Assembly: GCA_017452545.1 (NCBI GenBank)
Contig: JAFTME010000030.1
Span: 1 to 32,286, forward strand
Reading direction: 5' to 3'
Origin: Clostridia bacterium
Lineage (GTDB): Bacteria > Bacillota > Clostridia > Oscillospirales > CAG-272
DNA length: 32,286 nucleotides
How positions within the stretch are numbered: the stretch's first letter is position 1; every line of letters begins with the position of its first letter. This document shows, piece by piece, positions 1 to 12,824 of this stretch. The translations under genes were made by a program, and so were the position numbers. Below the pieces are notes generated by a model. It had not been told where the DNA came from. It did not search any database and saw only the letters and a program-made list of their open reading frames with translations.

Positions 1-539
1 CCGAAGATACCGAAGATATCAAAGTAACGGAAGCTCATGAACATCGAGAGCTGCAGCGTCTGGTGAGGAATGATCATGGTCAGCATGACCAGCATGAACA
101 GAAGCTTGTTGCCCTTGAAGCGGAACTTTGCAAAACCGTATCCAATCAAGCTACAGATGAAGGTCTGGATCAGAGCCGTGCTGAAGGAGAGGAAGAAGGT
201 GTTGCGAAGTGCCGTCCAATAACCCAGCTCGCTGAGAACGGCTTTATAGGTTTTCAGCGTGAAGTTCTTGGGGATCAGGCGAACCGTTACGTCAACGAAG
301 TCCTCCTGGCCCATGAAGGAGCTGGCAATCTTGGTAAAGAAGGGGAACAATACGACGTATGCGATACCGATCAGCAAGCACAGACGGAAGATGTACCAAA
401 CGACATTCTTCAGGAAGTACATGGAGAGGAATTTCGCCTTGAGACGTTCTTTGAGAGGGGTTCTCTCAAAATCAACACGAATCTTGTTCTTAGTCTCACG
501 CTTAATGGTGGGCTTGGACTGTGTATTTTGTGCGTTCAT
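1..539 (-). CDS. Carbohydrate ABC transporter permease, MalG type (C-terminus beyond window)
   Basis: Inner-membrane permease half of a sugar ABC importer, probably pairing with the MalF-type permease just upstream. The start ATG (537-539) has a strong GGAGGAG site 9 nt ahead. About 179 codons are visible. A charged N-terminal tail of about 50 residues leads to a first membrane segment (YIFRLCLLIGIAYVVLFPF), then a periplasmic stretch ending in the family's TLKTYKAVLSELGYWTALRNTFFL-like region, then further membrane segments (FICSLIGYGFAKFRFKG, LFMLVMLTMIIPHQTLQ). This is the usual MalG/CUT1 pattern. The EAA loop that contacts the ATPase lies past the window edge. It is the seventh gene of the operon, 21 nt after the preceding stop. 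The family is clear; the substrate is not. Confidence 0.9.
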   Translation of the reverse strand, partial: MNAQNTQSKPTIKRETKNKIRVDFERTPLKERLKAKFLSMYFLKNVVWYIFRLCLLIGIAYVVLFPFFTKIASSFMGQEDFVDVTVRLIPKNFTLKTYKAVLSELGYWTALRNTFFLSFSTALIQTFICSLIGYGFAKFRFKGNKLLFMLVMLTMIIPHQTLQLSMFMSFRYFDIFGIF

Positions 540-560
540 TCGTTAATTCTCCTCCTTTCC

Positions 561-1547
561 TTACATATCTTTCTTCTGGTAGAAGACATACGCCGAGAAG
601 ATACCGCCGATAATGGCAACGATCACGATAATGATCAGGAAGTAGATCCATGCCATTGCCGAGCTGAGCGTTTGTCCGTCTGCGTCGCCGTAAACCTCGG
701 CAACGTATTTCATGACTTGGTTAGAGTCGGTCGTAAACGAGTCGATGATGGTATAGACGCCGTTAACCAGGATCATCGGGCTGATCATCGGAAGGGTGAT
801 CTTCCAGAAGGTTTCCCAAGAGGTTGCGCCGTCGATGCGGCAGGACTCGTAAATTGCGGGAGAGATGGACTGCAGGGCTGCCAGGAAGATCAGCATCTGT
901 ACGCCGGAACGGTTAACGATATTGAAGATATTGTTAACTGCGTTTGCAACGTAGGTAACGATGCCCTGACCGACCTTCATGCCGGAGAACAGTCGCTGGA
1001 TATCCATAGCGGAGACGATTTCCGATGCCGCGCTGGATTCTTCACCCGTTTCGATACCCTCCGTGCTACCCATGTAGTCGCTCAGCGTGTTCTGTGCCTC
1101 GATGCCCTCCATGATACCGGTTGCAAGAACAACAGGCAGGAAGAAGATTGCACGGAATGCTGCACGGCCGACCATCTTCTGGTTCAAGAGAACTGCCATG
1201 AACAGAGAGAAGATCAGAATTGCGGGGATATCAAACGCCAACTGGGTCAAGCCGGAGGTCAGCGTTCTGAAGAAGTTGGGGTCGTCAAAGAGTGCGTCGT
1301 GGTAGTTTTTCCAACCGACGAACTCCAGCTCGTAGCCACCGCCCTGGACGATATTGACCGTATTGAAGCTCATGACGATAGAGTCATAAACCATCGGCAG
1401 GTAGACCAGGACAAAGCCAATGACGAACGGGAGGACAAAGAACCAACCCGCACGAGCCTTACGGCGATCGAGAGATGCGATTTTGCGCTTTTTGGGCGCA
1501 GCTTTATTTGCGCTTACTGTTGTTTTCAGCTTTGCTTCGTTTGTCAT
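561..1547 (-). CDS. Sugar ABC transporter permease, MalF/UgpA type (second permease pair)
   Basis: Integral membrane permease of a CUT1-type carbohydrate importer, 328 aa. The ATG at 1545-1547 is preferred over the adjacent TTG (1550) because AGAGGTG sits at proper distance from it. After a basic N-terminus (PKKRKIASLDRRKARAG) the first membrane segment is WFFVLPFVIGFVLVYLP. The EAA loop is visible near residue 240: YESCRIDGATSWETFWKITL, with the conserved D-G-A and I-LP pattern. Between the third and fourth core segments lies an unusually long, acidic extracytoplasmic stretch of about 50 residues (around 150-200, NTLSDYMGSTEGIETGEESS), which could contact a binding protein. It is 18 nt after the DUF5696 gene and 21 nt before the MalG-type partner, so it is co-transcribed. 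It stops with TAA. Confidence 0.92.
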   Translation of the reverse strand: MTNEAKLKTTVSANKAAPKKRKIASLDRRKARAGWFFVLPFVIGFVLVYLPMVYDSIVMSFNTVNIVQGGGYELEFVGWKNYHDALFDDPNFFRTLTSGLTQLAFDIPAILIFSLFMAVLLNQKMVGRAAFRAIFFLPVVLATGIMEGIEAQNTLSDYMGSTEGIETGEESSAASEIVSAMDIQRLFSGMKVGQGIVTYVANAVNNIFNIVNRSGVQMLIFLAALQSISPAIYESCRIDGATSWETFWKITLPMISPMILVNGVYTIIDSFTTDSNQVMKYVAEVYGDADGQTLSSAMAWIYFLIIIVIVAIIGGIFSAYVFYQKKDM

Positions 1548-1565
1548 CAATTACACCTCTCTTTC

Positions 1566-4500
1566 TCAATGCTGAATGACGACGTACTCATTCGCGGGGA
1601 TCGTGTAAACCTTTGCTACGCCATCAACATCATAGTTGACGGTAACAGCAAAGTTGTTATAGTTGAGAATGAAGGTCTTGTAAGGAGTTACGGTCAGGCC
1701 GTCCTTATCACCGTAGGTAACGGCAACGATATTACCGTTATTGATGAGATAAGGATTGACTTCCTCTTCAACTTCCTCTTCCTTCTCTTCCTCATCGGTG
1801 ATCAGGTATTCGTCGATCTCTTCCTTGGTAATGTTACCGGCGGCAGCCTTTTCGTAGATGGTAGATACGTAGGACTGGCAGATCTGAACCTGCTCTTCGA
1901 TTGCGGACAGGTAAGAAGCGGTATCCTCTGCACACTTCTGTGCATCCAGAATCAGCTCCTCTGCTGCACCTGCTGCGGTCAGCAGATCAACTGCCTTTGC
2001 AGCGTCAGCCTGCAGCTGCAGAACCTCATCATAGGTCTTGAGTGCATCCTGAGCCATCTGGATACCGTTGGTTGCTGCCTTACGGGCGTCGGTCAGCTGC
2101 GTTCTGTAGGACTTGAGTGCAGCCTTGATCTGGCCCTCGGTAGCGTTGGGTCTGTTCAGATAGTTCTGGTATGCTTCCCACTTGCTGATACTGTCGCGCA
2201 GCTTCTTATCGATCTCTGCGGTAGCAGTCTTGATCTTCTTTGCATCATCCTTAAGCTGCTCCAGGATCTTCTCCATGGTTTCTACACCGCTCTTGGCTGC
2301 AGCTCTTGCTGCGGCGATCTCGCGGATGCGCTCCAGAGCCATCTGCTCGTCGTACTGAGCCTCGTACTTTGCGCGCTCAGCCTCAGCAGCAGCGATCTCT
2401 GCCTGGATCTCGTCGGCATCCAGAATACGGATACCCTCGATGAACTCATGGTCAACGATCAGTTTGGTCTGAATATCGCCCATGACGCTATTCAGCTCAT
2501 TGTAAAGGGAGATCACGTCTTCCTTCCAAATTGCGTAGTTGATGGAGTAATACTGGGAGAGCTGGAAGAATTCCTTCAGCTCGCTGGTATTGCGGTAAGA
2601 GAGCGTGAAATACAGGGAGGAACCGTTTTCGATTGCCTTCAGCATTGCATAGTTAGCGTCGCCTTCCATGTTGATCGGCGTGCCTGCAAACTGGATATAA
2701 CCGTGCAGGACCAAACCGACGAACGGAATAGAACGGCTTGCCTTCATGAAGCGGGAGGAATCAAGGTCAACGTTGAGGATATGATCCAGATACTTCCAGG
2801 TGTATGCATTCGCGCCGTCAGCCATGATGCCGTTGACGTTTGCATCGGAGGAGATAGCAGCCAGTGCATTCTCAAGGAAGGTCTTGTTATCCTCGCGGTT
2901 GTAAGGCTCATCCTCATCGAAGTCGGTATTCAGGTCAGTACCCATGGTACTGAGCGAAATACCCATGCCGCCGAGGTCTGCATATTCTGCATACTCACCC
3001 AGCAGCTTGGTGTAGATGCGATCGATATACGCGGGAGAGATTGCTCTCTCGAAGTAACCGACATGAGTCTGCCAGCAAGGATCGTAATATCTCTTGGAGG
3101 TATAACGGTTATCGATGGTGCGGATCAGGTCGCGCTTGGGTCTGATGCCGTCGAACATCTCGGTCATGGACAGGTACTGCAGCTCAAACTCAGGGAAAAT
3201 ACCCAGGTGGCCGTCGCCCTTATTGACCGTGTTCGCGTAATCCAGCAGGCCCTCGAACTCAGCCTTGCCGCCGACCGACTTTTCCCACTTCAGCTTGGTG
3301 GGAGCAGTTGCGTACATACCGCCGTTTGCATAACCGGTCAGCTTGAAGTTGATGTTCTTAACGCCGGCCTCGGACAGCTCCTTATACATCAGCTCAATGT
3401 CGTCGAAGGTAGCCAGGGGCTTCATGACTTCTACGGGGAAGGACATGATCTGCTCCGTTACCTCGATGGCACCGAAGGACTCGATGTACAGGGGGATATC
3501 GTCGGTTACGTCAGCGTCGGTCAGGCGAGAGAGGATCTCCTTCTCTGTCAGATAATCGGTGTAGGCGGATGCCATGCCGACGTAATCTGCTGCGTAGAAG
3601 TTACCGCTCTCGGTATAACCGGTCTCGGTAGCCAGTGCGGGATCGGACAGCATGACGTAGCGGATCTTGAAGTTTCCGGTGTACTTTCTGTCGGAAACGA
3701 TAGTCATCGTGTTAGACTCGGAGACCGAGATTGCGTCGGACAGGTCGTAGGAATCCTTGGGACGGGGGTTGAAGTAGTTCATGATGGTGTGATAGTCGTT
3801 CAGGGAGCCGGCGTGATAGGTTGCCAGCTTACAGAGCGACTCACCCTCTTCAATGATTGCGAAGTAACCGTTCTGGTAGACGACCTCTTCAATTGCGGAG
3901 TAGTCGTCGTAGGTACCTGCGGTTACCTTCTCGTCCAGCAGGGTTTCCAGCTTTTCGATGCTCTTTGCAACCGTTGCGGAGATGGAGTGCTGCTCCTCGA
4001 CGAGCTCGGTTTCACCGGTCTCATCGTTCTCTACCTCGGTCGTGGTGGTGTAGGTGTAGAACATCTGGTCTTCCTTAATGCCGAAGACGGGCATACGCAG
4101 TGCCTTCTGATAGGTACCGCCATCCAGGTTATGGTAAGCGTAGTCAAGGCCGTAGATACGACGAGAGGTCGTATAGGTCTGCTTACCTGCCAGGTCCTCG
4201 AATGCGAACAGCGCACCGGAGCCGTCGGGATAGAAGGTATAACCGGTGTTATAGCTGTTACCTGCGCCCATGTAGGGCAGGATGCTGATGTGCTCCAAGG
4301 AGTACAGCGTGGAGTTAAAGCGAACGCCGTTTGTAGGCAGACGAACGGTAAAGCCGTCCTCGTTCAGCGTATACTCCAGTGCCATCTTAAAGACGGGAGA
4401 AAGCTCATTTTCGCTCTCGTAGCCGGTCTCTGCATGGTCAGCGTCCATCTGGTCGAAGGTGTAGTCAGGGCAGTAACCCTTGATCTGCTCCTCGATGAAG

Positions 4501-5228
4501 TTCAGCTCGACCGAGCTGATGGTGGGGTCAAGGCTGTAAACGTCCATCTCTGCGCAGATGGGGTACTTCTGCAGCAGCGCCTCTTTACCCTTCTTAGAGG
4601 TAGCGGTATCAAGATCCTGCAGCGTATAGAATGCACATACACGCTCGAAAGAGTGCGTACCGCCGATTGCCTCCTCCATGGGAGCCTTAATCAGCGTATC
4701 GAAGTTAGTACGGGAAATCAGGCGGGGTGCGAGCTTTCTCGTAGCCTCGTCACCGATGGTGTACTCTACGCGGACACCGGTCTTGATCTTCTTGACCTTG
4801 AGCTGATTGTTCAGCGCGGCATCCTTATAGGAATACATTTCCTTTTGCTGATCGTTATCTACATATTTGATAATGATCTGCGACAGGATCTGCTGCTTAT
4901 AGTTAGCAGAACCGATCGAGCTTGCGACGTCATAGGGGTTGGACAGAGAGATCTGACCGGTCTTCTTATTGACGATGGCAAAGGCTGCGGTAAAGTCGTT
5001 GAAATACATCTGGAAGTTGTCGTTTTCCATGTACAGCGTCATGTACTCGAGAACTTCCTCGGGCTTATTGAACACCTCAGTAGTGTAATCGATGGTGGAA
5101 GCGGTCTTGACCTCTTCCTCCTCTTCCGTTTCTGCTGCGCTGACGTTAAGCACAGAGAGGCAAGTCATAGAACCAAGCACCATCAAAACAGCTAAGAGGG
5201 TCGAGATTGTTCTTAAAAACAGTTTCAT
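1566..5228 (-). CDS. Secreted DUF5696 protein with coiled-coil insert
   Basis: Large exported protein of 1220 aa. It has a cleavable signal peptide (hydrophobic core at residues 8-27, likely cut after NVSA near residue 31) and then a run of glutamates. The body matches my recollection of DUF5696, a family typically coded beside CUT1 sugar importers in Firmicutes. The stretch at about 560-930 has alternating strand/helix segments reminiscent of a TIM-barrel glycosidase, but I cannot name catalytic residues. Residues about 937-1157 are an Ala/Glu/Lys/Gln-rich coiled coil ending in an acidic EEEKEEEVEEE run. It interrupts the domain before a final beta segment (about 1158-1220, with FILNYNNFAVTV). 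The start has AGGAG 9 nt upstream. It is fifth in the transporter operon, 23 nt after the Yip1 part. A role in handling the sugar outside the membrane is inference. Confidence 0.85.
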   Translation of the reverse strand: MKLFLRTISTLLAVLMVLGSMTCLSVLNVSAAETEEEEEVKTASTIDYTTEVFNKPEEVLEYMTLYMENDNFQMYFNDFTAAFAIVNKKTGQISLSNPYDVASSIGSANYKQQILSQIIIKYVDNDQQKEMYSYKDAALNNQLKVKKIKTGVRVEYTIGDEATRKLAPRLISRTNFDTLIKAPMEEAIGGTHSFERVCAFYTLQDLDTATSKKGKEALLQKYPICAEMDVYSLDPTISSVELNFIEEQIKGYCPDYTFDQMDADHAETGYESENELSPVFKMALEYTLNEDGFTVRLPTNGVRFNSTLYSLEHISILPYMGAGNSYNTGYTFYPDGSGALFAFEDLAGKQTYTTSRRIYGLDYAYHNLDGGTYQKALRMPVFGIKEDQMFYTYTTTTEVENDETGETELVEEQHSISATVAKSIEKLETLLDEKVTAGTYDDYSAIEEVVYQNGYFAIIEEGESLCKLATYHAGSLNDYHTIMNYFNPRPKDSYDLSDAISVSESNTMTIVSDRKYTGNFKIRYVMLSDPALATETGYTESGNFYAADYVGMASAYTDYLTEKEILSRLTDADVTDDIPLYIESFGAIEVTEQIMSFPVEVMKPLATFDDIELMYKELSEAGVKNINFKLTGYANGGMYATAPTKLKWEKSVGGKAEFEGLLDYANTVNKGDGHLGIFPEFELQYLSMTEMFDGIRPKRDLIRTIDNRYTSKRYYDPCWQTHVGYFERAISPAYIDRIYTKLLGEYAEYADLGGMGISLSTMGTDLNTDFDEDEPYNREDNKTFLENALAAISSDANVNGIMADGANAYTWKYLDHILNVDLDSSRFMKASRSIPFVGLVLHGYIQFAGTPINMEGDANYAMLKAIENGSSLYFTLSYRNTSELKEFFQLSQYYSINYAIWKEDVISLYNELNSVMGDIQTKLIVDHEFIEGIRILDADEIQAEIAAAEAERAKYEAQYDEQMALERIREIAAARAAAKSGVETMEKILEQLKDDAKKIKTATAEIDKKLRDSISKWEAYQNYLNRPNATEGQIKAALKSYRTQLTDARKAATNGIQMAQDALKTYDEVLQLQADAAKAVDLLTAAGAAEELILDAQKCAEDTASYLSAIEEQVQICQSYVSTIYEKAAAGNITKEEIDEYLITDEEEKEEEVEEEVNPYLINNGNIVAVTYGDKDGLTVTPYKTFILNYNNFAVTVNYDVDGVAKVYTIPANEYVVIQH

Positions 5229-5251: not shown

Positions 5252-5683
5252 TTATACGCGGTACTGGATTTCTACTACGATATTGGTAATCAAGCTGATG
5301 ATCTTACCGACCAGCGTCGAGAAGAGCAGAGCGACGAAGATGATCAGTGCCATACCAACAATGGTGCCTACGAAGGTGATCAGGTTCTTACCCATGGAAT
5401 AATCGTGTGTAACCATCGTTCCAAAGAAGACCAGGATACCCATCCAGAACAGTGCGATGGTAAATACCAGCGCGATGAGCGAGGCTTCCGTCGTAATAAC
5501 GAAGTTAGACAGGAAGACTGCGGGGATCATCAGCAGCGGTACGGGAACTAGGGAGTAGGAAACGGCGATAAAGATATCCTTAAAGCTGCCTTCACCCTCG
5601 AAGAGCGTGGTCAAACACCAGTTTGCGGTTACGAACAGGAACAGCGGAACCAGTACGCCGATCAGCTGTGCCAGACTGGTGGA
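5252..5683 (-). pseudogene. C-terminal continuation of the NHL-Yip1 protein after an in-frame TAG
   Basis: These 143 codons follow directly and in the same frame from the TAG at 5684-5686 and end in TAA. They encode the rest of the Yip1-like membrane domain: four hydrophobic segments (for example LIGVLVPLFLFVTANWCLTT and FTIALFWMGILVFFGTMV) and the family's EGEGSFKDIFIAVSYSLVP motif. No base is inserted or lost. With the TAG read as an amino acid the whole protein would be 713 aa. I see no ribosome site or convincing start inside it, so separate translation is unlikely. It is either the dead tail of a truncated gene, a sequencing or assembly error, or part of a product made by reading through TAG. 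Confidence 0.7.
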
Positions 5684-7393
5684 CTAGCTGTTGGTGGGGT
5701 TCATAACGTAACCGATACCGATGGACTGATAGTAGAATGCGACAATGGTAAGGCCGACGAAGACGAGAGATGCACGCAGCGAGCCGCGCTTTTCGTGCTT
5801 CAGATCCCAGAAGCCATCGAAGGGATGGAACATGGTATGGAAGCCGAACAGGATCTCCTGCCAGAAGGTCTTGCGCTCACGACCGTCGGTCGAGACCTTT
5901 TTGTTGACCTTCTTTGCGTAGCCGAAGAACTTAACGACGATAACGATAGCAGCAACGACGATCAGGATCAGCAGGAGGAAGTAGCGAGACATCCACTCCT
6001 TACGAACCTCCTTATAGGCGTTGGACCAGTTGGTGGTATCGTATGCGGTTTCGTAGTACTCCAGAGCCTCGGCGTAGTCACCGCTGCGGTACAGTGCGTT
6101 ACCGATACCGATGTAGGCGGCGTCGAAGTTGGAGTTATGCTGAAGAACGCTTCTCCAGCAGGTGATAGCGTAGGTATAATCGAGCGAGTTCTCTGCGGCG
6201 ATTGCTTCCATGAGCAGGTCACCGTAGGGGGTTCTCTCGTAGACGACGACACAGTTACCGGACTTATCCAGAACCAGCATGGTATCGTCCTGATAGGTGA
6301 TCGCCTCAATGTTGGAGATGGAGCCCAGCATGGAGCCCTTATCACCAAAGGCAAACAGCAGATTACCGTTGAAGTCGTAGGTGTAGATCTTACTTCTCTT
6401 CTCGTCGATGATAGACCAGGTCTGATCGGGACCGCAGGCTACGTCGATGACACGGGAAACGCCGTTATAGGTTTCGGTGGGGTCGGTGGTATAATCGATC
6501 TCACCGGCGGGAGCGAAGAAGCCGTTACGTCTCATAATTTCGGAGCCGGCTGCGTTCAGCATCTTGACGGGAAGCTGATCGCCGTTCTTGGAACGGATTG
6601 CACCGGCGACCGTGCCCTCATCGATAGAGGAGGTGGTTACGTAGATATAACCGCGGTTCTGCTCGTTGGTGGTGATGGTGATGTTGTTAAACTCGGTGGA
6701 AACGTATTGCTGCTGCTGCTTTCTCTGTGCTTCGGTCTGGAATCTTCTCCAGATGATGTCCAGGAAAGAGATGGTAACCTTCTGTGCACCGATGAACTTA
6801 ACGAAGTCGCCGTTCTCCGTCAGAACGATAACGCCCTGATAGGTGGTAGAGGATACGACATACAGACGGTTCCAGTCGTCAACTGCAATCGCAACGGGCT
6901 TATAAACGCTGTCCTCTTCGAACAGTGCGCTTTCGGGCTCTTCAATCTGCTTGATGAAGTTACCGTCGCGGTCGAACACGACGATACGGCTCTTACCGGT
7001 ATCGCAGACCCAAATGCGGTCCTTGGTAACGTAGAGGCCCTGGGGGTTGGACAGAGCATCGTCGATACCCTGCTCGTTGATAAAGGTGCTGATATAGAAC
7101 TTAGCCTTATAATAACGGTCCAGTGCGATGATTCGGTTATTACCCGAGTCTGCGATGTAGACGTTATCATCCTCGTCGGTGATCAAGTCTGCGGGGTTAT
7201 TCAGACCCAGCTCGTCGATGCCCATTGCTGCAGCATCAAGCGAGATATACGCGGAGTACGCGTCGGGAGAGTTGACCGCATTACCATTGATATCGTAGGT
7301 ATAGCTCTTGTACGCCGAGGACGCGCTGACGGGAACGGACAGCAGCGTAATCATTGCAAGGACGACTGCAAGAACAGATATAATCTTTTTCAT
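5684..7393 (-). CDS. NHL-repeat/TPR/Yip1-domain membrane protein, ended early by TAG
   Basis: Exported, membrane-anchored protein read here as 569 aa. It has a signal peptide (residues 1-25, ending PVSAS), then NHL-type beta-propeller repeats (about 50-390) with recurring ADSGNNRIIALD and CDTGKSRIVVFD motifs, then TPR-like helices (about 395-465, GNALYRSGDYAEALEYYETA). One membrane span follows (471-490) and then the first part of a Yip1 domain. The reading frame stops at a TAG after NPTNS, in the middle of the Yip1 domain, and continues open beyond it. The start has GGAGG overlapping the preceding stop, 11 nt after the MalG-type permease. Proteins of this build are coded with sugar importers and DUF5696 proteins; their function is not established. 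A sensor or scaffold for the importer complex is my inference. Confidence 0.85.
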   Translation of the reverse strand: MKKIISVLAVVLAMITLLSVPVSASSAYKSYTYDINGNAVNSPDAYSAYISLDAAAMGIDELGLNNPADLITDEDDNVYIADSGNNRIIALDRYYKAKFYISTFINEQGIDDALSNPQGLYVTKDRIWVCDTGKSRIVVFDRDGNFIKQIEEPESALFEEDSVYKPVAIAVDDWNRLYVVSSTTYQGVIVLTENGDFVKFIGAQKVTISFLDIIWRRFQTEAQRKQQQQYVSTEFNNITITTNEQNRGYIYVTTSSIDEGTVAGAIRSKNGDQLPVKMLNAAGSEIMRRNGFFAPAGEIDYTTDPTETYNGVSRVIDVACGPDQTWSIIDEKRSKIYTYDFNGNLLFAFGDKGSMLGSISNIEAITYQDDTMLVLDKSGNCVVVYERTPYGDLLMEAIAAENSLDYTYAITCWRSVLQHNSNFDAAYIGIGNALYRSGDYAEALEYYETAYDTTNWSNAYKEVRKEWMSRYFLLLILIVVAAIVIVVKFFGYAKKVNKKVSTDGRERKTFWQEILFGFHTMFHPFDGFWDLKHEKRGSLRASLVFVGLTIVAFYYQSIGIGYVMNPTNS

Positions 7394-7404
7394 TGTAATC
7401 CTCC

Positions 7405-8277
7405 TTAATCTTTCATACCACTGGAACCCATGGTTTCAATGATATTGGACTGCGAAATAACGAATACGATGATCGGGACTGCCATCATCAGTACCAGAGA
7501 TGCTGCGGAAGCACCCGCACGCTTGATACCGCCGGCAGTGATCTGACCGATTGCATAGTTGAAGGTCTTGAGCTGCTCGGAGTAAATAAACACGGAAGCA
7601 CCTGCGTTCCAGAGGCCCTGGAAGGAGTAGATGATCAGCGTCAGCCAAGCGGGCTTAACCATGGGCATTGCGATGACCCAGAAGGTACGGAACTCGCTTG
7701 CACCGTCAAGTCTTGCACTCTCCAAAACGGCGTCGGTAACGTTGGTATCCATGAACTGCTTCATCAGGTACAGACCCAGCGTGGAAGCCCATGCGGGAAC
7801 GATGATTGCCCAGTAGGTATCGATCCACTTGAAAGCAGCCATAACGATGAACAAGCAGAGCGCGGTAACGGTCTGATGGAACATCAGCGACATCTCAACG
7901 GTCTTGAACATCAGGACGCGGCCCGGGAACTTGATCTTTGCCAGTGCGTAAGCACACATGGAGGCGAGGAGCAGGTGTCCGAAGGTACCGGCAATGGAGA
8001 TGAAGACGGTGTTGAAGATGTAACGGGTGAAGGGCACCCAGGAGGTGTTCATCAGGATGAACAGATCCTTAAAGTTATCGAGTGTGGGGTTGATTACGTA
8101 AAAACGGGGAGGATACATCCAAAGCTCGTCAAGAGGCTTCAGCGACTGCATGATAACGTAGATCATAGGCAGGAACATGAAGGCACCCAAGATCACCAGC
8201 ATGAATGTAATTCCGGCGTCGCCTCCCGCAGAGCGGGAGAGGACGACCTTATGCTTTCTTGTTCTAAGTTTTGCCAT
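7405..8277 (-). CDS. Carbohydrate ABC transporter permease, MalG type (first permease pair)
   Basis: Inner-membrane permease of 290 aa, the usual size for MalG-type CUT1 proteins. The first span is ITFMLVILGAFMFLPMIYVI, followed by QSLKPLDELWMYPPRFYVIN, a typical periplasmic start. The ATPase-contacting EAA loop is LESARLDGASEFRTFWVIAM near residues 185-205. It starts only 1 nt after the stop of the MalF-type partner, so the two are translationally coupled. A weak AAGGTAGG-like site lies within the partner's end. It ends in TAA just before the ribosome site of the NHL-Yip1 gene. It forms a heterodimer with the product of 8279-9229 by analogy with MalFG; the substrate is unknown. Confidence 0.93.
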   Translation of the reverse strand: MAKLRTRKHKVVLSRSAGGDAGITFMLVILGAFMFLPMIYVIMQSLKPLDELWMYPPRFYVINPTLDNFKDLFILMNTSWVPFTRYIFNTVFISIAGTFGHLLLASMCAYALAKIKFPGRVLMFKTVEMSLMFHQTVTALCLFIVMAAFKWIDTYWAIIVPAWASTLGLYLMKQFMDTNVTDAVLESARLDGASEFRTFWVIAMPMVKPAWLTLIIYSFQGLWNAGASVFIYSEQLKTFNYAIGQITAGGIKRAGASAASLVLMMAVPIIVFVISQSNIIETMGSSGMKD

Positions 8278-8278
8278 A

Positions 8279-9229
8279 TTAAGTACCTACCTTCGACAGC
8301 ATTCTCTTGATCAGCATATTGGAGCCGATCATGACTGCGAACAGCACGACGGCGATCGCAGAGGCGTAACCCATTTCATAACGCTGGTTTGCAAAGTCTT
8401 CCAAATGGTGCATGATGGTATGTGCGGAATAGTCAACCGAGGGGAAGCCGCACAGTGCGGTTACGACGCCACCGAAGCCGAAGGCACCGGTGATTGCCAT
8501 GACTGCACCGAACATCAGCTGCGGACGCATGGAGGGCAGCGTGATGTACCAAAGCTCCTGCCAACGGTTACGGATACCGTCAACGGCACCTGCCTCGAAC
8601 AGTGCGCGGTCGATACCCTGCAGACCTGCGATAAAGGACAGGAACGCGGTACCGAGCGACGTCCAGAGGGCGACGATGATACAAAGCGGCATGACGTACT
8701 CGGCATTCTGGAACCATGCGATAGGCTCAACGATGATACCAAGCTCGATCAGAGATGCGTTGACCCAGCCGTAAGCGTCGGCGGAGAACAGCGTACCCCA
8801 AATCAGATACACCTGACCGGAGATGGACGGTGCGTAGAAGATCAGAGTAACGATAGCACGGACACGGGGATCCAGCTCGTTGATGAACCATGCAACGAGG
8901 AACGACAACAGGTAGGACACAGGACCTACGACGCACGCGAACAGCAGCGTGTTCTTACATGCGATCAGGAAGATGTCGTCGTCGAAAAACAGGGTGATGT
9001 AATTGTCCAGCCAAACGATATTGGGGGGCAATTGCAACATATTAAAGTCGGTGAAGCTGATGAACGCCGACAGAATGACGGGCATGACGGTGAAGATGGT
9101 GAAGAGGATCATGTAGGGTGCAACCATGAGGTATGCGACCTTATTGACCTTCATTTCCTTCCATATCCACTGAGCACGAGTCATATCTGTACGGGACACC
9201 GCTTTCAGTTCTGCAGTTTTCTGTGACAT
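8279..9229 (-). CDS. Sugar ABC transporter permease, MalF/UgpA type (first permease pair)
   Basis: Integral membrane permease of 316 aa. After a cytoplasmic tail the first span is VAYLMVAPYMILFTIFTVMP, followed by the LSAFISFTDFNMLQLPP region and the family pattern W.DNYITLF. The EAA loop near residues 215-240 is FEAGAVDGIRNRWQELWYIT, then LPSMRP. AAGGAG lies about 9 nt before ATG. It begins 43 nt after the substrate-binding protein gene and is overlapped closely by the MalG-type partner. The visible hydrophobic segments fit six spans. No nucleotide-binding subunit is coded nearby, so it must use a shared ATPase (MsmK/UgpC-like) from elsewhere or one to the left of the window. Confidence 0.93.
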   Translation of the reverse strand: MSQKTAELKAVSRTDMTRAQWIWKEMKVNKVAYLMVAPYMILFTIFTVMPVILSAFISFTDFNMLQLPPNIVWLDNYITLFFDDDIFLIACKNTLLFACVVGPVSYLLSFLVAWFINELDPRVRAIVTLIFYAPSISGQVYLIWGTLFSADAYGWVNASLIELGIIVEPIAWFQNAEYVMPLCIIVALWTSLGTAFLSFIAGLQGIDRALFEAGAVDGIRNRWQELWYITLPSMRPQLMFGAVMAITGAFGFGGVVTALCGFPSVDYSAHTIMHHLEDFANQRYEMGYASAIAVVLFAVMIGSNMLIKRMLSKVGT

Positions 9230-9272: not shown

Positions 9273-12200
9273 TCAGTACGTGCTCAGTGCCTCTGCAGCG
9301 TCGGACAGACACTCGGCTGCGAAGAAGAGGAGCTGATCGTAGGTAAGACCGTCGATATCATAACCGCCGTTCTTCTTTTCCTGATCCTGTCTGGAAACCT
9401 TGACATAGTAATCATCTACATTCTTGGATGCAAGGCGTTCCATCAAAGCATCTGCACAATCCTGCAGAATAATGATTTCTTCATCTGCAATCGCATTGGA
9501 TGCGGTGATCATAATTGTTTCAAGCTCTGCACTCTGCTCTACCAGGAGCTCAAGTGCAACCATTGCCTGCTCACCGCGCTTATCGGCCAGCGTCTGACCG
9601 ACCTCAAGCGTCTCAAGCAGGAACTCTGCACGCTTACGGGTAATCTCCTTGTTGATGGTGTTGATGTAGCCCAGCAAGCTTGCAACGGGATCGGCATCCT
9701 TGTTGTAAGCAGCAAGGAATGCAAAGTTGGTATAACGGTCGATGTAGTAGGTACCGGGGTAGTTGGGGATTGCTGCGAGGTTTTCGAACTGCTTGGAAAC
9801 CTCAACGTACTCCTCGGTGGTCCAAGGCAGCGATCTCAGAGCTTCTCTGTTTGCGGTGTTGTGCTTTGCAGAGTCACCCATGATAGCAGCCATTTCGTTT
9901 GCGTAGTCAGCCTGGCAGGTAGCGCCGGTAAACCACTTCAGATACTCCCAAGCCTCGTCTTCCTGGTCGCAGCCCTTGACGATAACGTCGGCGAGGACAC
10001 CGGAAACGGAGCAGTTGTTGATTGCGCCGGTCTCTTCATCCAGGGTACCGGGCATCGGAACGAACTTCCACAGACCGTCGATCTCGGTTGCGAAGACCTT
10101 GAGCTGGTTGTACATACCGGTATAGTCGGCAACCAGGATAGGCATCTCACCCGTTCTGAAACGGTTTGCAGCATTGTAGGTGTAGGGGAAGCCGCGCATG
10201 GTGAACAGCGTACACATGGTCTCGAATGCATCCAGACCCTCCTTGGAGTCCAGATTGATTCTCATACCGCCGTCAGCGAACAGGTCGCTGCCGCCCTGGT
10301 ACAGGAACACCTTGTAGTCGGTCGTCAGACCGATCTCCATGTTGTTACCCTCAAGGACCGTCTGTGCCTCGTAGATATCGTCCCAGGTTTTGGGGATCTC
10401 GATACCCATATCGGCAAGAACGTCGATACGAACGAACATCATGCTGAAGCCCTGCGTTTCGGGCAGACCGTAGTAGTGCAGCTCATCGTCTGCGTTTGCA
10501 ATACCGAGAACCATCATTGCGGAGTCGGTAAAGTTCTTGGTGACCTCTTCGAAGTCCTCGCGGACGGTGCCGTCGGACTTAACGTCCAGCGTTTCCAGCG
10601 CACCGCGGATCGCGTAGTTGATGATGGTACCTGCGTCAATTCCCAGGAAGACGTCAGGGCCCATGCCTGCCAGGATGGAAGGCATCAGCGTACCGCCGGC
10701 AACCAGCTTAAGGTCGACGGGGATACCGGTCGTGGGTGTGAAGCCGTCGGTGGTCAGCGCACGGATGACCTGAGACTGGTCACGTGCGGTCTGCAGCCAA
10801 ACCTCAAGAGAATCCTCGGTCGTCTCAGCCATAGCACCCATGGAGTTATAGTCACGGATGAAGGACTGGATAAAGGAGGAGATCTCGTGTGCGATCTTCT
10901 TGAAGAAGCCGGGCTCAGCTACGGGCAGCTCCGAATCAACGGGCTGGATCAGAATGTAGTCAAGCTGCAGGGGCTGTTTCTTTGCGTCGGAGAGGAAGGT
11001 ACCCAGCGAACCGATGTGGGTCTTGAGCTGCTCCAGGTTGGGAGCGATCTCGTCCTCTTCGTGCATCTTAAACAGCGTTTCGGCAACCTTCTCCAGCGTA
11101 GCAACGGTGGAGGAGCTGGAGCCCGCGATTGCCTTCAGCTCAGCTGCGACCTCGTACAGTCGGCGGGACTGCTCGACCATATCGGACAGCGTCTGAGGCA
11201 TAACGCGCGTGAAGTTATAGTCACGGTAATCGTCGGGGGAGGTACCGGTCAGACGGAGGATGTTCAGGTAGTCTGCGTTGACGCAGTTCAGAACGTTCTC
11301 GATCTTTGCGATGACCTCAGCCATGCTACCCAGCGTAACGTCAAGGCGCAGCGTGTAGGTAACGCCCTCGACGAAGTAGAACTGGTATTTGATCAGGTTA
11401 CCGTTTGCATCCACGTCACCGTTGACGGTGCTGGTGGACTGCCAGTAACCGGAATAGTTAAAGCGTGCAGCAGCGACCTCTGCGAAGGGGTAGCCGTTAT
11501 AGTAGCCGTCGTCGCCTTCCTTCAGACCGTCGCTGTACAGCTGAATTGCACGGCTGACGAACAGACCGTCAAGCACGGACTGTTTAAAGCGGAAGTCCAG
11601 CGTATAGAGACCGGTGGAGTCTACCTCGAAGGTATACTCGACGCTCTGACCGGGAGTTCCCCACTTCTCACCGCCGTTACCGCCGATGGTGTTCAGCAGC
11701 GTACGGGTGGTATCCGTAGGAGAGTTTGCGGCAGAAGCGCGGTCCTCTGCGGGATACAGCGTGTTGGAGGACAGGTTGGTGGGATACTCAGCCTCGAGCT
11801 TAATGGTGGAGGCACCCTTGGGAGCGTTCGCGTACTTTGCGATGTACTCCTCGTAGGTGATCAGGTCCTCGTGAGGATACAGCTCGATCTTGGAGATCGC
11901 CATAGCCTCGTTGACGCCCTTGAGCGTCAGAGTGACCTTACCCTCGGCATCGGGCTCGATGATGTACTCGAAGGACTCGGCGTTATAGCCCTGGCTGTCG
12001 CGCAGCTCGTATACGCGCCACTCGGGAGTCTGAACCGTCGAGGGACGCAGCTCGTTGCGCTGCAGGTCGATGGTCATAAAGCGAACGCCGAGCGTATCGT
12101 TCAGATACGTGGAAACGGCTTCCGTCCAGACCGTCGGGAAGGTATATATAATGTAGGTGCCATCCTCGCGGGTCTCCTCGGTTGCAACGACGCCAATATC

Positions 12201-12824
12201 CTTAGCAGCGTTGAGGAGCTCGCTTGCACTCTCATCCTTGCCTACCTTATAAGCAGCGCTTGCGTACTCGTTTGCCCAAACCTTCTCGAAGCTCAGCGAA
12301 CGAGACTCCTTGAAAGCAGCACTGCCGTTGATATAAAACTCTCTCTCCACAGCCGCGGACTTACCGGCGACGGGATAGTAGTAGACGCGTGCGCTGTACA
12401 GACCGGCGGGGACATCGGTCAAGGTCCAGCTGACGGAGCCGTCTCCAGGCGTATACAGGCCCTTCTGGCCGTCGAATTCACCGGCATAAATACCCTTGGG
12501 GTTATTGGCGGCATCGTCGTCATTCAGCAGCGCCCACTGCTCATCCGTCAACCACTCCAGCGTGGTCTTTTCCTCGTCAAGATCCTTGATTGCATCGAAT
12601 ACGACGGTTTCCTTCGCTCTTTCGTAATATTCGAAGCTATCGTTGTACTCATCGTACGAAATCGACTCGAGCTCTTCCTTATAATCAGCAATCGTCTTTT
12701 CGGTGACGGTGCTGTTGATCACAACGTCGCCTTCCTGCGCGGATACAGTAAAGATACTGCAGCCGAGGAGAAGCGTCATTGCGAGCAAGAAAGAAGCCAC
12801 TCTTTGAAATTTCGTTTTTCTCAT
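9273..12824 (-). CDS. Giant extracellular solute-binding protein with carbohydrate-binding-like domains
   Basis: Exported sugar-binding protein of 1183 aa, more than twice the usual 400-450. The N-terminus is a signal peptide; LLGC at 19-22 could be a lipobox, although TVSA followed by Gln could instead be cut by signal peptidase I. Residues about 110-320 and 341-505 look like beta-sandwich carbohydrate-binding modules (the second opens with IKLEAEYP, as in CBM6/35-type domains). About 540-660 is helical. Residues about 660-1070 are the binding-protein core, with the RDQSQVIRALTTDGFTPTTG start, GPDVFLG and TWDDIYEAQTVL motifs typical of CUT1 binding proteins. A helical tail follows. GGAGGAAAG precedes the ATG. 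It is the first gene of the operon and is preceded by a roughly 360-nt leader. It would deliver substrate to the permeases; the ligand is unknown. Confidence 0.92.
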   Translation of the reverse strand: MRKTKFQRVASFLLAMTLLLGCSIFTVSAQEGDVVINSTVTEKTIADYKEELESISYDEYNDSFEYYERAKETVVFDAIKDLDEEKTTLEWLTDEQWALLNDDDAANNPKGIYAGEFDGQKGLYTPGDGSVSWTLTDVPAGLYSARVYYYPVAGKSAAVEREFYINGSAAFKESRSLSFEKVWANEYASAAYKVGKDESASELLNAAKDIGVVATEETREDGTYIIYTFPTVWTEAVSTYLNDTLGVRFMTIDLQRNELRPSTVQTPEWRVYELRDSQGYNAESFEYIIEPDAEGKVTLTLKGVNEAMAISKIELYPHEDLITYEEYIAKYANAPKGASTIKLEAEYPTNLSSNTLYPAEDRASAANSPTDTTRTLLNTIGGNGGEKWGTPGQSVEYTFEVDSTGLYTLDFRFKQSVLDGLFVSRAIQLYSDGLKEGDDGYYNGYPFAEVAAARFNYSGYWQSTSTVNGDVDANGNLIKYQFYFVEGVTYTLRLDVTLGSMAEVIAKIENVLNCVNADYLNILRLTGTSPDDYRDYNFTRVMPQTLSDMVEQSRRLYEVAAELKAIAGSSSSTVATLEKVAETLFKMHEEDEIAPNLEQLKTHIGSLGTFLSDAKKQPLQLDYILIQPVDSELPVAEPGFFKKIAHEISSFIQSFIRDYNSMGAMAETTEDSLEVWLQTARDQSQVIRALTTDGFTPTTGIPVDLKLVAGGTLMPSILAGMGPDVFLGIDAGTIINYAIRGALETLDVKSDGTVREDFEEVTKNFTDSAMMVLGIANADDELHYYGLPETQGFSMMFVRIDVLADMGIEIPKTWDDIYEAQTVLEGNNMEIGLTTDYKVFLYQGGSDLFADGGMRINLDSKEGLDAFETMCTLFTMRGFPYTYNAANRFRTGEMPILVADYTGMYNQLKVFATEIDGLWKFVPMPGTLDEETGAINNCSVSGVLADVIVKGCDQEDEAWEYLKWFTGATCQADYANEMAAIMGDSAKHNTANREALRSLPWTTEEYVEVSKQFENLAAIPNYPGTYYIDRYTNFAFLAAYNKDADPVASLLGYINTINKEITRKRAEFLLETLEVGQTLADKRGEQAMVALELLVEQSAELETIMITASNAIADEEIIILQDCADALMERLASKNVDDYYVKVSRQDQEKKNGGYDIDGLTYDQLLFFAAECLSDAAEALSTY

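What the first reader, a model, noticed from the sequence alone, without database searches (positions are those of the whole stretch)
5684..5686. Single in-frame TAG in an otherwise intact NHL-TPR-Yip1 gene, in a window where no gene ends in TAG
The reading frame is open on both sides of the TAG and the 143 downstream codons complete the Yip1 domain, so only one base separates a truncated from a full 713-aa protein. All 22 other complete genes stop with TAA (13) or TGA (9). If TAG were normally 15% of stops, none in 22 would be seen about 3% of the time. This suggests TAG avoidance, as happens when TAG is reassigned (pyrrolysine or suppressor tRNA). A nonsense mutation (for example CAG to TAG) or a consensus error is equally possible.
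Basis: partly seen in the sequence, partly recalled or inferred. Interest (0 to 1): 0.72.

Follow-up and report, generated by a model that had tools for sequence, protein, structure and literature searches.

The report
Single-base premature stop, not recoding
A gut Clostridia gene carries one stop codon where its relatives have an ordinary codon (usually tyrosine), most simply a recent one-letter mutation or an assembly error; the rarity of TAG stops nearby is normal for this bacterial family and does not show that the genetic code has changed.

Summary
In detail: codon 570 of a 713-codon NHL-TPR-Yip1 gene (5252-7393, minus strand) is TAG, open on both sides, and the other 22 complete genes end in TAA (13) or TGA (9). 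No relative has a stop at this site; the usual residue is Tyr (TAT/TAC), so TAY->TAG is the simplest history, not CAG->TAG. Sequence after the stop is as conserved as before it, so the stop is recent, read through, or an error. TAG makes up only 2% of stops in a 0.9-Mb sample of this genome and 3-5% in relatives, so none in 22 is expected about 65% of the time. Recoding is poorly supported: RF1 is present, PylS absent, none of 39 tRNAs has a CUA anticodon, and some TAG ends sit directly before terminators. One surprise: three more in-frame TAGs, and no clear in-frame TAA or TGA, turned up in the sample, in RNase Y, a Gfo/Idh enzyme and a histidine kinase. They replace Gln, an invariant Trp and Tyr. 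Mixed residues, each one base from TAG, fit nonsense changes or consensus errors at about 2e-4 per base. A UAG suppressor is not excluded, because part of the genome is missing.

The parts
5252..7393 (-). NHL-TPR-Yip1 gene, 713 codons plus TAA, interrupted by TAG at codon 570
   Evidence: Translation; Pfam Yip1 1.5e-14, NHL 4e-12, TPR_2 3.9e-7
5684..5686 (-). In-frame TAG, codon 570; Tyr in 71 of 107 aligned loci, then Thr, Phe and others; no stop at the site in any relative
5252..5683 (-). 143 codons after the TAG (plus TAA), completing the Yip1 domain and still constrained: 77.5% identity to the closest relative, differences at codon positions 1/2/3 of 0.22/0.07/0.46
5672..5677 (-). Codons 573-574, AGT CTG (Ser-Leu), where the nearest relatives have ATT/ATC/CTG TGG (Ile or Leu, Trp); looks like a compensated +G/-G pair or a small complex change just past the TAG
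   Evidence: mechanism inferred
1566..5153 (-). DUF5696 protein, conserved downstream neighbour
7405..8277 (-). ABC transporter permease, conserved upstream neighbour
8279..9229 (-). ABC transporter permease, conserved neighbour
9273..12824 (-). Extracellular solute-binding protein, conserved neighbour

Best explanation
The TAG is a single-base nonsense change, read as a stop, in a gene that is intact in the relatives. It most likely arose by TAT/TAC->TAG. It is either a consensus error or minority-strain base in a metagenome-type draft assembly (slightly favoured) or a recent true mutation; which of the two is inferred, not shown. If true, the cell makes a 569-residue protein that keeps the propeller and TPR parts but loses most of the Yip1 membrane domain.
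For: None of the relatives aligned at the site has a stop there, and Tyr codons prevail (71 of 107). The family-wide search shows no other TAG in this gene; in-frame TAA or TGA is reported only in eight matches of six genomes, low-identity, split or partial. The sequence after the stop has not decayed. Three further in-frame TAGs in the sampled 0.9 Mb replace Gln (CAG), invariant Trp (TGG, 29 of 29) and Tyr, different residues all one base from TAG. By single-base supply 59% of nonsense changes in this genome would be TAG, so four of four has probability 0.12; four in 0.71 Mb of coding sequence implies about 1.7e-4 substitutions per base, plausible for such an assembly (plausibility is my judgement). 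RNase Y being hit favours error over true loss. RF1 is present; some TAG ends lie beside terminator-like hairpins; no CUA tRNA among 39; no PylS. The RNA after the stop folds no better than shuffles (z -0.18). The published code screen describes the same artefact: pseudogene stops read as recoding (PMC8629427).
Against: All four clear in-frame stops are TAG and none is TAA or TGA. No frameshifts were found in this genome in the comparison with its genus mate, whereas true pseudogenes usually show both. RNase Y is found in 56 of 59 genomes searched, so its loss would be surprising. The assembly is about 90% complete and lacks Asn and Ile tRNAs, so a missing suppressor tRNA cannot be ruled out. 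No reads could be examined.
Confidence: 0.87

Rival explanations
1. A UAG-reading suppressor tRNA makes the cell insert an amino acid at in-frame TAGs part of the time, while UAG still ends some genes.
For: Four of four clear in-frame stops are TAG; TAG is rare as a stop (2%), against about 20% on average in bacteria (PMC3549826); the post-stop sequence is conserved; one hit gene is RNase Y.
Against: Low TAG use is shared by relatives without in-frame TAG in the genes searched. Replaced residues are mixed: Tyr, Tyr, Gln, Trp. No CUA tRNA was found, RF1 is present and several TAG ends look genuine. TAG-only has probability 0.12 by mutational supply, so it is not strong evidence.
Confidence: 0.07
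2. Pyrrolysine is inserted at UAG.
For: Low TAG use only.
Against: No PylS over cut-off in this genome or 58 relatives. The in-frame TAGs are in genes with no known link to pyrrolysine, and the aligned residues vary.
Confidence: 0.01
3. A programmed stop regulates a short and a long form of the protein.
For: Both sides are under constraint.
Against: No relative has a stop at the site, no other TAG in this gene in the family, and there is no notable RNA structure after it.
Confidence: 0.02

Closest known systems
Nonsense mutation or consensus error in an otherwise intact bacterial gene
   Same: One base from the codon of relatives, open frame and conserved sequence on both sides, species-specific
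   Different: The four clear cases in this genome are all TAG, which mutational supply explains only moderately well (p 0.12)
UAG suppression or pyrrolysine use
   Same: In-frame TAGs in conserved genes and rare TAG stops
   Different: No suppressor tRNA or PylS found, RF1 kept, mixed residues, relatives equally TAG-poor without in-frame TAG

Membership tests
UAG codon reassignment | A tRNA with CUA anticodon | tested here: inconclusive
   None among 39 tRNAs, but the assembly is about 90% complete and lacks Asn and Ile tRNAs
UAG codon reassignment | In-frame TAGs consistently aligned with one residue | tested here: not met
   Tyr, Tyr, Gln, Trp; only four sites
UAG codon reassignment | RF1 lost or UAG no longer used as a stop | tested here: not met
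   RF1 present; several TAG ends directly before terminator-like hairpins or overlapping the next gene
Pyrrolysine insertion | PylS | tested here: not met
   No match over cut-off in 59 genomes
Pyrrolysine insertion | pylT, pylB, pylC, pylD | not tested
   Not searched, since PylS was absent
Nonsense change in an intact gene | Relatives keep a sense codon one base away | tested here: met
   Tyr TAT/TAC in 71 of 107; no stop at the site in relatives
Nonsense change in an intact gene | Base confirmed or rejected by reads | not testable with these tools
   No reads available

The most novel reading that the evidence does not exclude
This uncultured Clostridia species carries a natural UAG suppressor tRNA (in the missing tenth of the genome or on a mobile element) that keeps in-frame TAGs in conserved genes, RNase Y included, tolerable: an early stage of stop-codon capture in a family that hardly uses TAG.
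Probability: 0.07. Interest if true: 0.75.

Novelty: already known. Interest (0 to 1): 0.17.

Why it matters
As it stands it matters mainly as a caution: rare TAG stops plus a broken frame do not show recoding when the whole family is TAG-poor. If the four in-frame TAGs proved real and were translated, the species would catch UAG capture in progress, and a genome with 2% TAG stops is where that change would cost least.

Tried and rejected
Pyrrolysine (no PylS). Single-residue reassignment to Tyr: raised when two in-frame TAGs fell on Tyr sites, dropped when the other two fell on Gln and invariant Trp. CAG->TAG for this gene: Gln is at the site in 1 of 107 aligned loci. A structured read-through signal after the stop. 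A possible in-frame TGA on another contig (L145 8056) lies in a frame with a second TGA and antisense-like sequence, so it was set aside. TAA and TGA candidates in the coding-continuation scan were judged by eye to be next-gene starts or antisense frames, apart from one weak TAA near a contig end (L143 8977) that was not followed up. Formal dN/dS mostly failed numerically and is not used.

Full report
Check of the observation. The TAG at 5684-5686 (minus strand) is codon 570 of a frame that runs from 7393 to a TAA at 5252. Pfam finds NHL repeats, a TPR and a Yip1 domain at 519-689, so the stop falls inside the Yip1 domain.

The statistic. In a 0.9-Mb sample of the same assembly (G000, 2.22 Mb, 159 contigs, about 90% complete) TAG is 13 of 638 stops, 2%; it is 2.7% in a sample of the nearest genus mate and 4.8% in family loci. 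With 12 of 634, none in 22 has probability about 0.65. TAG is thus scarce compared with the bacterial average of about 20% (PMC3549826), but scarce throughout this family.

Relatives. The gene sits in a conserved run, solute-binding protein, two permeases, this gene, DUF5696, in that order in 74 of 80 loci. In the search of 97 genomes the window's copy is the only one with a TAG. Eight other matches in six genomes do contain a TAA or TGA: five are below 36% identity, two are partial or low matches in one genome with several diverged copies (G068), and one (G057, 52%) is a gene split into two matches with one TGA. None of these was examined further. At the site itself no relative aligned has a stop: Tyr in 71 of 107 aligned loci, then Thr 13, Phe 9 and others; some loci are the same genome fetched twice, so the counts are not all independent. 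The four genus mates that span the site have Tyr, Tyr, Phe, Phe. The simplest history is TAT or TAC to TAG.

After the stop. The 142 compared codons after the TAG are 77.5% identical to the closest relative, with differences at codon positions 1, 2 and 3 of 0.22, 0.07 and 0.46, much like the part before it. The frame has not decayed, so the stop is recent, read through, or not real. The next few codons are odd: AGT CTG (Ser-Leu) where close relatives have Ile or Leu followed by Trp, which could be a +G/-G pair; codon 560 (Ile where Gln is commonest) is odd too. Over the gene as a whole this stretch is not an extreme outlier (rank 94 of 693 windows).

Other in-frame stops. Of the 13 TAG-ended calls in the sample, four are clearly internal: this gene, RNase Y and a Gfo/Idh oxidoreductase 3.3 kb apart on one contig, and a histidine kinase near its end. 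No clear internal TAA or TGA was found. RNase Y has no stop in any of the 55 other genomes where it was found. For Gfo/Idh, no relative in the table has a TAG, and the matches at 54% identity or more have no stop at all; eight matches in seven genomes, at 31-39% identity, do contain a TAA or TGA and were not examined. The aligned residues are Gln (CAG) in the genus mates' RNase Y, Trp (TGG) in all 29 relatives read for Gfo/Idh, and Tyr in the histidine kinase against its genus mate.

Weighing. A reassignment would be expected to place TAG at one residue; here there are three kinds, each one base from TAG. Codon use makes TAG 59% of possible single-base nonsense changes, so four of four TAG has probability 0.12; four in 0.71 Mb of coding sequence implies about 1.7e-4 substitutions per base. 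RF1 is present, PylS absent, and 39 tRNAs include no CUA anticodon, though Asn and Ile tRNAs are missing too. Several TAG ends are followed at once by terminator-like hairpins or overlap the next gene. I therefore hold a nonsense substitution, error or recent mutation, at 0.87, and suppression at 0.07.

Noticed in passing
L207 1938-3494 (-) (G000 contig C57): RNase Y gene with an in-frame TAG at codon 179, where genus mates have CAG (Gln).
   Followed up: partly
L207 5871-7046 (-) (G000 contig C57): Gfo/Idh/MocA oxidoreductase with an in-frame TAG at codon 279, where all 29 relatives read have TGG (Trp).
   Followed up: partly
L146 1833-3341 (-) (G000 contig C4): Histidine kinase with an in-frame TAG at codon 474, Tyr in the genus mate.
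   Followed up: partly
G000, G001 and family loci: TAG is only 2-5% of stops across this Clostridia family, against about 20% in bacteria on average.
   Followed up: partly
window 3-5195 (+): A 1730-codon open frame antisense to the DUF5696 gene, probably a by-product of codon bias.
   Followed up: no
window 5672-5677: Codons 573-574 differ from relatives in a way that suggests a compensated +G/-G pair beside the TAG.
   Followed up: partly
L143 8977 (+): A weak TAA candidate inside a coding-like frame near a contig end.
   Followed up: no
G007, G008, G017, G033, G073, G077, G078; G057, G067, G068, G078, G091, G095: In-frame TAA or TGA reported inside mostly low-identity matches of relatives to the Gfo/Idh and NHL-Yip1 queries; not examined.
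   Followed up: no
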